Shown piece after piece: positions 1 to 2,625 of a stretch of DNA of 64,000 bases. Source of the stretch: Streptomyces collinus. GTDB taxonomy: Bacteria; Actinomycetota; Actinomycetes; Streptomycetales; Streptomycetaceae. Position 1 is the first letter of the stretch, and each line of letters opens with the position of its first letter. The stretch is from positions 1,550,001 to 1,614,000 of the forward strand of contig NZ_CP133771.1 in the NCBI RefSeq assembly GCF_031348265.1, written 5' to 3'. The notes beneath the pieces were generated by a model. That model had not been told where the DNA came from. It searched no databases and saw only the letters and a program-made list of their open reading frames with translations. Made by a program: the position numbers and the translations under genes.

Positions 1-726
1 GGCGAGCGCCCCGCGCCCGGAGGCCAGCGTCGCGGCGACGGCCCGGGCCAGCTCATCGCTCCACTGCGGCCCGGGCAGCGCGTTCCACACGGCCCGGGGC
101 GCTCCACCCGAGGCCAGCGACGCCAGGAAGGCCGCTCCCCGCTCGTAGCGCTGCCAGGATGCCGCCTCGGGCGCGGGGGGCGGTGGCAGCGGCTGTGGGG
201 AGGGCCGCTGCTCGGCTCGGGCGTTGCGCGGTGGCACGGCGAGCTGCAGGACGTCGGCGAGGCTGCCCGCGTACCGGTCGGCGACCGCCCGGGCCAGCCC
301 CAGCAGTTCCTCGCTGAGCACCTGCTCGGGCGACACGACCTGGGCGAGGGCTGCCAGCGGCCCGGAGTAGTCGGACTCGGCCAGCCGCTCGACGAGGAAC
401 CCGTCGATCAGTCCGCCGCCCTCGCGCCGTCCGTCCCGCACGCGATGCCGCCCGGCCCCGAACCGCACGCGCACCCGCACGCCCGGCCGGGCGTCCGCGT
501 CCAGCTCCTCGGGCACGGCGTAGTCGAAGTACCGGTCGAGATGGAGGACGCCCTTGTCGACGAGGACGCGTGCGACGGGGAGCTCCTTGGCGAGCGCGGC
601 CCCCCGCCAGGTGCGCGGTTTGGCCCGGGGCGTCCTGGCCTTGCGCACGCTGTCCCGGATGAGCGCGAGCTGCTCGGGCGGCGCACCCTCGGCCCCGCCG
701 CCCGCCTGTTCGTTCTCGCTGCTCAC
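1..726 (-). CDS. priA: Primosomal protein N' (PriA), 5' part; gene runs off the window's left edge
   Basis: The first 242 codons are visible, in frame from a GTG at 724-726 to base 1. PriA recognises stalled replication forks and helps reload the replicative helicase; actinobacterial members are generally regarded as having a degenerate helicase core. The visible part matches the N-terminal 3' DNA-binding region: about residues 50-92 read like the PriA segment carrying FDYAVPEEL followed by PGVRVRVRFG. An alanine/proline-rich linker follows. The helicase and zinc-binding parts lie outside the window, so nothing can be said about them. The start has only a weak purine-rich upstream stretch. 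The tRNA-like element at 781-893 lies on the same strand, 54 nt upstream of the start codon. Confidence 0.85.
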   Translation of the reverse strand, partial: MSSENEQAGGGAEGAPPEQLALIRDSVRKARTPRAKPRTWRGAALAKELPVARVLVDKGVLHLDRYFDYAVPEELDADARPGVRVRVRFGAGRHRVRDGRREGGGLIDGFLVERLAESDYSGPLAALAQVVSPEQVLSEELLGLARAVADRYAGSLADVLQLAVPPRNARAEQRPSPQPLPPPPAPEAASWQRYERGAAFLASLASGGAPRAVWNALPGPQWSDELARAVAATLASGRGALA

Positions 727-780
727 GCTTGCATTCTTACCAAACACCACTGACAGGCGGAGGCGCCCGAGGTCCCTCGT

Positions 781-893
781 GGTGACGGCGCGCACTCGCC
801 TTGGACCACTCGGCCACGCCACCGGGCACGGCCCGGCCGACGGCGGGATTCGAACCCGCGGGGGCTGCATCGAGCCCAGAAGTATCCGTCACC
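781..893 (-). ncRNA. Permuted tRNA-like element (T arm before D arm)
   Basis: Read on the minus strand (893 to 781), all parts of a class II tRNA are present except an anticodon loop, in the order 3' half then 5' half. A closing 8-bp helix (893-886 with 788-781) is followed by a variable-arm hairpin (877-862, 5 bp), a T arm (859-843, 5 bp, loop TTCGAAT), an acceptor 3' strand (842-836), a 12-nt spacer (835-824), an acceptor 5' strand (823-817), a UG linker (816-815) and a D arm (814-798) containing GAGTGG. The acceptor strands and spacer form one hairpin of 11 bp with a single bulge and a 3-nt loop. In the usual tRNA register the acceptor has 6 of 7 pairs, two of them G-U. A second possible helix (TACTT with GAGTG) sits inside the closing helix. 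No U33-containing loop or anticodon can be assigned. It could be a permuted tRNA gene, a cis-acting tRNA mimic in the priA leader, or a relic of a duplicated tRNA. Confidence 0.6.
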
Positions 894-901
894 TTCGCAC
901 C

Positions 902-917
902 GGGCGCCCCGGCGCCC
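902..917 (-). other. 7-bp GC inverted repeat just upstream of the tRNA-like element
   Basis: GGGCGCC and GGCGCCC flank a 2-nt centre and end 8 nt before the tRNA-like closing helix. It could be part of a longer precursor RNA or a simple GC palindrome. The possible -10 hexamer TACGGT lies immediately upstream at 921-926, but I see no good -35 partner. Confidence 0.35.
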
Positions 918-1005
918 TCCACCGTAGAGAGCGGCCGCCACCGTCCGCGAGCCGTTTTGAAGGCCCGCAGGGCAGAAAGGGGCCCGCGCGGGACGGGGCG
1001 GCAGG

Positions 1006-1180: not shown

Positions 1181-2389
1181 TTACTGCCCCGCGGCCTTGC
1201 GCAGCGCGTCCACGCGGTCCGTCCGCTCCCAGGTGAAGTCGGGCAGCTCACGGCCGAAGTGGCCGTACGCGGCGGTCTGGGAGTAGATCGGGCGGAGCAG
1301 GTCGAGGTCGCGGATGATGGCGGCCGGACGGAGGTCGAAGACCTCGTCGATCGCCCTCTCGATCTTCTCCGTTTCGATCTTGGCGGTGCCGAAGGTCTCG
1401 ACGAACAGGCCGACCGGCTCGGCCTTGCCGATCGCGTACGCGACCTGGACCTCGCAGCGGGTGGCGAGGCCCGCGGCCACGACGTTCTTCGCGACCCAGC
1501 GCATCGCGTACGCCGCGGAACGGTCGACCTTGGACGGGTCCTTGCCGGAGAACGCGCCACCGCCGTGACGGGCCATGCCGCCGTAGGTGTCGATGATGAT
1601 CTTGCGGCCGGTCAGGCCGGCGTCACCCATCGGGCCGCCGATCTCGAAACGGCCGGTCGGGTTGACCAGGAGACGGTAGTTCTCCGTGTCGAGCTTGATG
1701 CCCTCGTCCAGCAGCGCCTTGAGCTCCGGCTCGACGACGAACTCCTTGATGTCCGGAGCCAGGAGCGAGTCCAGGTCGATGTCGGAGGCGTGCTGGGAGG
1801 AGACCACCACGGTGTCCAGGCGGACCGCCTTGTCACCGTCGTACTCGATGGTGACCTGCGTCTTGCCGTCCGGGCGCAGGTAGGGGATCGTGCCGTTCTT
1901 GCGCACGTCGGACAGGCGCTTCGACAGGCGGTGCGCCAGGAAGATCGGCAGCGGCATCAGCGTCGGCGTCTCGTCCGTCGCGTAGCCGAACATCAGGCCC
2001 TGGTCGCCCGCGCCCTGCTTGTCGAGCTCGTCGTCGTCACCCTCGACACGGTTCTCGTACGCCGTGTCCACGCCCTGGGCGATGTCCGGGGACTGCGCGC
2101 CGATCGACACCGACACGCCGCAGGAGGCGCCGTCGAAGCCCTTCTTGGAGGAGTCGTAGCCGATTTCGAGGATCTTGTTCCGGACCAGCGTCGCGATGTC
2201 CGCGTACGTCTTGGTCGTGACCTCGCCGGCCACGTGCACCAGGCCGGTCGTGATCAGGGTCTCGACGGCGACCCGGGATGACGGGTCCTCGCGCAGAAGC
2301 GCGTCGAGAATGGTGTCGCTGATCTGGTCAGCGATCTTGTCGGGGTGACCCTCGGTGACGGACTCCGAGGTGAACAGACGACGGGACAC
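1181..2389 (-). CDS. metK: S-adenosylmethionine synthetase
   Basis: The product (402 aa) makes S-adenosylmethionine from methionine and ATP in the cytoplasm. The N-terminal motif TEGHPDK is at residues 12-18, and the phosphate-binding loop [19 protein letters not shown] is present further on; the length is normal for the family. The open frame continues far upstream, but homology begins at the GTG (2387-2389), which has an AGGGAG ribosome-binding site. The coaBC gene lies upstream on the same strand, separated by a 236-bp gap with its own promoter-like sequence, and a terminator follows metK. In Streptomyces SAM level is linked to antibiotic production and differentiation (general knowledge, not shown by the sequence). 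Confidence 0.97.
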
Positions 2390-2625
2390 AACGCTCCCTG
2401 AGGTTGCAGCGGCTGCTGGCTGATCATTGGCGGACGGCGGGGGCTGCACCCGGCGCCGTCCGTGGAACAGTTTACGGGTCACGCTTCGGCCACGGTCCCC
2501 CCGTCTCGCCACTCGGGAGTGCTGTGACCTGCGGCACGGGCATTCTGCCCAATACCGAGTGACGTTGGCCAGAGGCGCCACGCCCGGATCCGCCCACTTT
2601 CGCGTGGTACGCGGCCCATGAGCCG
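2390..2625 (-). promoter_or_regulatory. metK upstream region with -10 hexamer and leader hairpin
   Basis: On the minus strand a TAAACT hexamer (2474-2469, TANNNT type) is followed within a few bases by a 9-bp hairpin, CGGACGGCG with CGCCGTCCG (2462-2431), and then about 40 nt to the metK GTG. A leader of roughly 75 nt is implied. No convincing -35 box is seen. The hairpin does not resemble a SAM riboswitch core. Confidence 0.4.

What the first reader, a model, noticed from the sequence alone, without database searches (positions are those of the whole stretch)
781..893. Circularly permuted tRNA-like structure in a bacterial intergenic region
On the minus strand a tRNA 3' half (variable arm, canonical T arm with loop TTCGAAT, acceptor strand) comes before a tRNA 5' half (acceptor strand, UG, D arm with GAGTGG). 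A 12-nt spacer joins the acceptor strands, and an exact 8-bp complement (781-788 and 886-893) closes the whole 113-nt unit. This is the layout of permuted tRNA genes known from some algae and archaea. I know of no such case in Streptomyces. The mature anticodon cannot be identified: the possible anticodon stem (TACTT with GAGTG) leads to loop bases without U33.
Basis: partly seen in the sequence, partly recalled or inferred. Interest (0 to 1): 0.88.

Follow-up and report, generated by a model that had tools for sequence, protein, structure and literature searches.

The report
tRNA-mimicking bacterial Y RNA gene
The "permuted tRNA" between metK and priA in this Streptomyces is a small non-coding Y RNA: a stem predicted to bind the ring protein Ro60 carries a tRNA look-alike, so it cannot serve as a tRNA, but it shows that Streptomyces species carry sets of Y RNAs imitating different tRNA types.

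Summary
The sequence observation holds: on the minus strand, a variable arm, T arm and acceptor strand precede an acceptor strand and D arm, and an exact 8-bp helix (781-788/886-893) closes the unit. The full unit is about 757-914. This is the anatomy of a bacterial Y RNA of the YrlA kind, not of a permuted tRNA gene. A covariance model built only from 30 homologous RNAs lying next to Ro60 (TROVE) genes in Streptomyces finds 757-914 at 62.5 bits, E = 6.7e-12. Those RNAs match Rfam YrlA (up to 59 bits, E = 5e-11). In 101 Streptomyces genomes, RNAs of this kind (50 bits or more) occur in 58 of 60 genomes with a TROVE gene and in 0 of 41 without. The metK-priA copy is conserved in at least 19 species with compensatory changes. 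There is no anticodon loop, no CCA and no splicing motif. New here, as far as I could check: an orphan copy far from its Ro60 gene, and a module imitating a class II (Ser/Tyr-like) tRNA. Expression and Ro60 binding are inferred, not shown.

The parts
757..914 (-). whole Y RNA (YrlA-type) gene, about 158 nt
   Evidence: R1 full-length match 1-151/151, 62.5 bits, E=6.7e-12; 19 orthologs in metK-priA
921..951 (-). promoter-like element CTCGCG-N19-TACGGT (hexamers 951-946 and 926-921)
   Evidence: same element at 19 of 29 TROVE-linked arrays against 0.04 expected in mononucleotide shuffles, and upstream of 5 of 19 metK-priA arrays against 0.07; the generic sigma-70 consensus scan finds nothing
901..908 (-). 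outer helix, 5' strand GGCGCCCG (pairs with 762-769)
   Evidence: helix 1 of the R1 family has double changes at 7 of 12 pairs
894..900 (-). internal-loop strand GTGCGAA (GTGCGAAGG with the next two bases), candidate Ro60-binding motif
   Evidence: GTGCG followed by AG invariant in 30 of 30 TROVE-linked RNAs
879..884 (-). conserved TACTTC following the inner helix
   Evidence: invariant in 30 of 30 TROVE-linked RNAs; ACTT may pair with GAGT (797-794) as an anticodon-stem equivalent
862..877 (-). long variable arm GGGCT-CGATGC-AGCCC (class II tRNA feature)
   Evidence: 3 of 5 pairs with double changes in 9 orthologs
843..859 (-). T arm GCGGG-TTCGAAT-CCCGC
817..842 (-). acceptor stem closed as a hairpin (CGTCGGCCGGGC-CGT-GCCCGGTGGCG, one bulged G), no CCA end
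   Evidence: acceptor helix 99.5% paired, 5 of 7 pairs with double changes, in the R1 family
798..814 (-). D arm GCC-GAGTGGTCCAA-GGC, Ser/Tyr-tRNA-like
   Evidence: best similarity to tRNA-Ser and tRNA-Tyr genes of the same genome
781..788 (-). inner helix, 3' strand CCGTCACC
770..780 (-). 3' side of the asymmetric internal loop, ACGAGGGACCT
762..769 (-). outer helix, 3' strand CGGGCGCC
1184..2389 (-). metK (S-adenosylmethionine synthetase), upstream flanking gene; not part of the RNA
1..734 (-). priA (primosomal protein N'), 5' part, downstream flanking gene; not part of the RNA
   Evidence: my naming from the sequence; orthologous neighbour

Best explanation
757-914 (minus strand) is a gene for a bacterial Y RNA of the YrlA kind. 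The two ends of the RNA pair into a two-part stem (outer 8 bp, asymmetric internal loop with GTGCGAAGG, inner 8 bp) that should bind the genome's Ro60/Rsr-type TROVE protein, encoded about 520 kb away. Where a plain Y RNA would have its loop, this one carries a tRNA-like module (anticodon-stem remnant, V arm, T arm, acceptor hairpin, D arm). Because the module hangs on the stem at the place of the anticodon loop, its halves read in permuted order. Most likely the RNA is transcribed from its own promoter as a stable non-coding RNA, is held by Ro60, and uses its tRNA-like head to dock a protein that recognises tRNA-shaped RNA, or to gate Ro60. By analogy with Deinococcus, PNPase is the prime candidate partner. 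Shown here: anatomy, homology, conservation, co-occurrence with TROVE. Inferred: transcription, Ro60 binding, partner, role.
For: Model R1, from 30 TROVE-adjacent RNAs and excluding this locus, matches 757-914 end to end: 62.5 bits, E=6.7e-12. R1's source RNAs match Rfam YrlA at up to 59 bits, E=4.7e-11, full length. In 101 genomes, R1 at 50 bits or more occurs in 58 of 60 TROVE genomes and 0 of 41 others (Fisher p=2.7e-26). 91 of 107 such RNAs lie 563-1163 bases from a TROVE match. This genome has a TROVE gene with its own Y RNA pair just upstream (163.8 bits). R1 helices covary: 22 of 41 pairs with double changes, 93% paired, 0 of 500 shuffles. At metK-priA, 19 species have the tRNA-like form, often next to a second Y RNA without the tRNA module. 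Nine close orthologs: 97.2% paired, double changes mostly in the V arm. A promoter-like element is shared with the TROVE arrays.
Against: Rfam YrlA itself gives only 14.6 bits (cut-off 69) for the window copy; membership runs through the Streptomyces intermediates. The TROVE-adjacent intermediates tested also stay below the Rfam cut-off. The locus is not next to the TROVE gene. The anticodon-stem equivalent is weak in this copy. The inner and outer helices show only few double changes among the nine closest orthologs. No expression or binding data.
Confidence: 0.92

Rival explanations
1. A true circularly permuted tRNA gene: the transcript ends are joined, the acceptor spacer is removed and a decoding tRNA results.
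For: Order of halves, canonical T and D arms, a short spacer between the acceptor strands.
Against: No anticodon loop: the junction region is two helices and a Ro-motif loop conserved across the family, while the bases between D arm and inner helix vary in length and sequence. No CCA; the acceptor strands are one hairpin extended beyond 7 bp. No bulge-helix-bulge, which permuted pre-tRNAs need (PMC3978253). Ordinary tRNA genes exist (68 matches). Same architecture is tied to Ro60 genes.
Confidence: 0.02
2. Remnant of two tandem tRNA genes (3' half of one, 5' half of the next).
For: A real tandem tRNA-Asn pair does trigger R1 at 48.5 bits over 132 nt, so such pairs are a genuine look-alike.
Against: Window copy scores 62.5 bits and has inner and outer stems and the Ro motif on both sides; no tRNA outer halves are present; 19 species keep it with compensatory changes.
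Confidence: 0.01
3. A Y RNA pseudogene: a stray copy that has lost function in this strain.
For: One copy (L188/G007) looks like a fusion of two neighbouring Y RNAs and has a broken outer helix; several metK-priA regions carry no Y RNA or only fragments; weak anticodon-stem equivalent here.
Against: In the window copy both helices are perfect (8/8 and 8/8), the Ro motif, T loop and D loop are intact and a promoter-like element is kept.
Confidence: 0.1
4. A cis-acting leader of priA (tRNA-like regulator) rather than a free RNA.
For: It lies directly upstream of priA and no intrinsic terminator is found.
Against: Most homologs lie upstream of TROVE genes, a different gene; other orphan copies lie at loci without metK or priA; a conserved stretch (TGTCAGTGG...GGTAAGAATG) follows the RNA and precedes priA also in species without the Y RNA.
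Confidence: 0.06

Closest known systems
YrlA bacterial Y RNA (Rfam RF02553; Salmonella structure 6CU1, described in PMC8394870)
   Same: Stem made of the two ends of the RNA; tRNA-like D, T and acceptor arms inside it; same order of arms; homologs of this RNA next to a Ro60-type gene match the Rfam model full length.
   Different: Long class II variable arm and Ser/Tyr-like D arm; an orphan locus between metK and priA; too divergent for the Rfam model itself (14.6 bits).
Tandem Y RNA arrays upstream of TROVE genes in Streptomyces, described here
   Same: Same stems, Ro motif, TACTTC, promoter-like element; R1 finds both.
   Different: The TROVE-linked tRNA-like copies carry a class I (GTAGCTCA) or a Leu-like class II module.
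Circularly permuted tRNA genes of algae and Thermofilum (PMC3978253)
   Same: 3' half before 5' half, with a spacer between the acceptor strands.
   Different: No anticodon loop, no CCA, no bulge-helix-bulge; a bacterium; tied to Ro60 genes.
tmRNA, including two-piece permuted tmRNA (from memory)
   Same: A tRNA-like domain in a larger bacterial RNA.
   Different: No tag-peptide frame sought or seen; no open acceptor end; Rfam tmRNA gives no match here.

Membership tests
Bacterial Y RNA, YrlA type | long stem formed by the 5' and 3' ends of the RNA | tested here: met
   outer 8/8 bp and inner 8/8 bp; full-length R1 match
Bacterial Y RNA, YrlA type | tRNA-like module with D, T and acceptor arms inside the stem | tested here: met
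Bacterial Y RNA, YrlA type | conserved Ro60-binding motif in an internal loop of the stem | tested here: inconclusive
   GTGCGAAGG present and the GTGCG..AG pattern invariant in the family; that this is the Ro60 contact is recalled from the animal and Deinococcus literature, not tested
Bacterial Y RNA, YrlA type | genome encodes a Ro60/Rsr (TROVE) protein | tested here: met
   TROVE gene at G000:C1:2073376, Pfam 52 bits, with VWA-like part and solved relatives; 58/60 against 0/41 genomes
Bacterial Y RNA, YrlA type | linkage to the rsr gene (usual, not obligatory) | tested here: not met
   window copy is 522 kb from the TROVE gene; the paralog in the same genome is adjacent to it
Bacterial Y RNA, YrlA type | match to Rfam RF02553 above its cut-off (a practical, not a biological criterion) | tested here: not met
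   14.6 bits against 69; TROVE-linked relatives tested reach 30-59 bits
Bacterial Y RNA, YrlA type | binds Rsr in the cell | not testable with these tools
   needs co-purification
Permuted tRNA gene | intact anticodon loop after re-joining the halves | tested here: not met
   no conserved 7-nt loop or anticodon; junction is the Y stem
Permuted tRNA gene | bulge-helix-bulge at the pre-tRNA termini | tested here: not met
   7-nt/11-nt internal loop between two 8-bp helices instead; definition from PMC3978253
Permuted tRNA gene | separate acceptor ends with CCA, encoded or added | tested here: not met
   acceptor strands form one closed hairpin without CCA

The most novel reading that the evidence does not exclude
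Streptomyces Y RNAs have diversified into a set of isotype-specific tRNA mimics (class I, Leu-like class II, Ser/Tyr-like class II), each recruiting or decoying a different tRNA-handling protein, with the Ser/Tyr-like form kept at its own locus outside the Ro60 operon.
Probability: 0.2. Interest if true: 0.68.

Novelty: new variant of a known kind. Interest (0 to 1): 0.42.

Why it matters
Y RNAs are the partners of Ro60, a major autoantigen. In the papers I could read, function was studied only in Deinococcus and Salmonella. Streptomyces turns out to carry tandem Y RNA arrays of up to three units, closely tracking the Ro60 gene, and a second chromosomal home at metK-priA. The variety of tRNA modules on one shared stem is a natural experiment on what the tRNA-like head recognises. 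It also shows that tRNA-half searches in bacteria will raise false permuted tRNAs at such loci.

Tried and rejected
Thermodynamic folding alone (z = -0.11) says nothing in DNA this rich in G+C. A tRNA-Sec match at 24.8 bits (cut-off 47) is explained by the shared T arm and long V arm. The recurring 45-48.5-bit R1 matches of about 132 nt were suspected, and in one case shown, to be tandem tRNA pairs, so 50 bits was used as threshold; this threshold was chosen after seeing the scores. MAFFT misaligned the 3' part of the 19-row alignment A2, because one subtype has an extra hairpin after the D arm; helices were therefore checked by hand-anchored pairing (which failed for two rows, L179 and L193) and on the nine-row A3. 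The key YrlA papers (RNA 2014, Structure 2018, the 2018 review) are not held, so whether class II modules or Streptomyces Y RNAs were already described could not be checked; the paper searches found none.

Full report
Observation. The stated interval is too short. Outside it lies a second exact 8-bp helix, GGCGCCCG/CGGGCGCC (901-908 and 762-769). Between the two helices is an asymmetric internal loop whose 5' side is GTGCGAA(GG). ARAGORN finds no tRNA in the window and Rfam at gathering scores finds only the Streptomyces-metK RNA at 2394-2509. With permissive thresholds the locus gives weak tRNA-Sec (24.8 bits) and YrlA (14.6 bits) matches. Folding energy does not exceed shuffles.

What it is. 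A DNA search of 101 genomes of the genus gave two close relatives in the same place (L003, L004) and about twenty more distant ones elsewhere. Most of those elsewhere proved to be arrays of up to three small RNAs that share GTGCG[AC]AGG, a following TACTTC and two-part closing stems; some carry a permuted tRNA-like module and some only a short loop. The arrays sit directly upstream of a TROVE-domain (Ro60/Rsr) gene. The window's own genome has such an array: a plain Y RNA and a tRNA-like one just upstream of a 527-aa TROVE protein. That protein matches Pfam TROVE at 52 bits, has a VWA-like part with an intact DRSGS motif (my reading), and has solved relatives called TROVE domain-containing protein. 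The tRNA-like members match Rfam YrlA over its full length at up to 59 bits, E = 4.7e-11, below the curated cut-off of 69. YrlA is the bacterial Y RNA with a tRNA-like domain and a basal stem that binds Rsr (PMC8394870).

Test of membership without circularity. Thirty TROVE-adjacent tRNA-like RNAs, none from metK-priA, were aligned (A1). The named structure has 93% of cells paired and 22 of 41 pairs with changes on both sides, above all 500 shuffles and far above slid versions. It includes a 5-bp anticodon-stem equivalent, in which all five pairs have double changes, and the acceptor, T and D stems. The model R1 built from A1 finds the window locus from end to end, 757-914, at 62.5 bits, E = 6.7e-12; the next match in the window has 14.3 bits.

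Co-occurrence. With R1 at 50 bits or more, 58 of 60 genomes with a TROVE gene have such an RNA and none of 41 without (Fisher p = 2.7e-26). Species are not independent, so the p value overstates the case. Of 107 such RNAs, 91 lie within 1.2 kb of a TROVE match; 16 are orphans, the window copy among them. The 50-bit line was set after seeing that tandem tRNA genes can reach 48.5 bits; one such case was verified as a tRNA-Asn pair. R1 matches also occur in other genera of the order.

The metK-priA locus. A pattern scan of named genomes and a 394-genome DNA search, with tblastn for flanking genes, give 19 species, window included, with the tRNA-like form in this position; among them S. massasporeus, S. 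albiflavescens, S. fuscichromogenes, S. rhizosphaerihabitans, S. tibetensis and S. cyaneochromogenes. In 70 sampled loci, nearly all covering this region, Y RNAs with or without the module appear in a minority, and none of the ten genomes without TROVE that were included shows one. Many copies are preceded by a second Y RNA without a tRNA module; the window lineage has lost it. Nine close orthologs keep 97.2% of pairs; double changes fall mainly in the V arm. Over all 19, most inner helices pair 7 or 8 of 8 with changed sequence, for example GGTGACGG/CCGTCACC, GGCGACGG/CCGTCGCC and GGCCGCGG/CCGCGGCC (two rows were not resolved by the script). One copy (L188) has a broken outer helix and looks like a fusion of two neighbouring units.

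Expression signal. A bipartite element, TCG[CT]-N17-21-CTANN[GC]T, precedes 19 of 29 TROVE arrays against 0.04 expected in mononucleotide shuffles, and 5 of 19 metK-priA arrays against 0.07; the window has it with the same 19-base spacing (CTCGC...CTACGGT) as the TROVE array of the same genome. It would start transcription near 914. A generic sigma-70 consensus scan finds nothing, so this remains an inference.

Flavours of the module. In the TROVE arrays the module is either class I (GTAGCTCA...GAGC, short variable region) or Leu-like class II (GTGGCGGAA, long variable arm); at metK-priA it is Ser/Tyr-like class II. A simple local alignment to the class II tRNA genes of the own genome agrees: the window D half scores best with tRNA-Ser and tRNA-Tyr genes, the Leu-like one with tRNA-Leu(GAG). 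This is a crude measure.

Why not a permuted tRNA. Permuted tRNA genes are known from six algae and one archaeon and mature through a bulge-helix-bulge at their termini and a circular intermediate (PMC3978253). Here the termini form two helices with a 7/11-nt loop, no anticodon loop can be named, the acceptor strands are one closed hairpin without CCA, and the genome has 68 tRNA matches of the ordinary kind.

Mechanism. In Deinococcus, Y RNA tethers Rsr to PNPase, and YrlA is a substrate of the tRNA-modifying enzymes DusA and TruB (PMC8394870, PMC7790460). The most likely reading is the same here: Ro60 on the stem, a tRNA-recognising partner on the head. Only anatomy, homology, conservation and co-occurrence are shown; transcription, binding and partner are inferred. 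Novelty is limited to the variant: an orphan, class II tRNA-mimicking Y RNA with its own conserved locus. Whether this was described before could not be checked, because the main YrlA papers are not held.

Noticed in passing
window 2394-2509 (-): Streptomyces-metK RNA (Rfam RF03063, 112.1 bits) in the leader of metK; a known family.
   Followed up: no
L112:2840-2971 (G007): A tandem tRNA-Asn pair scores 48.5 bits with a YrlA-type model: tandem tRNAs are a systematic false positive for permuted-tRNA and YrlA searches.
   Followed up: yes
L183 (S. cyaneochromogenes, = L003/G049), about 993-1200: A 49-bp direct duplication of the 5' part of the Y RNA (Ro motif to V arm) upstream of the intact copy.
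   Followed up: no
L101-L111 (G052, G063, G033, G016, G097, G065, G095, G011, G032, G062, G055): Further orphan Y RNAs at loci without metK, priA or TROVE; their neighbours were not identified.
   Followed up: partly
L177, L180, L190, L191 and L016 at metK-priA: A subtype with an extra G+C-rich hairpin between D arm and inner helix (e.g. GCGCCCTCAGGGCGT); role unknown.
   Followed up: partly
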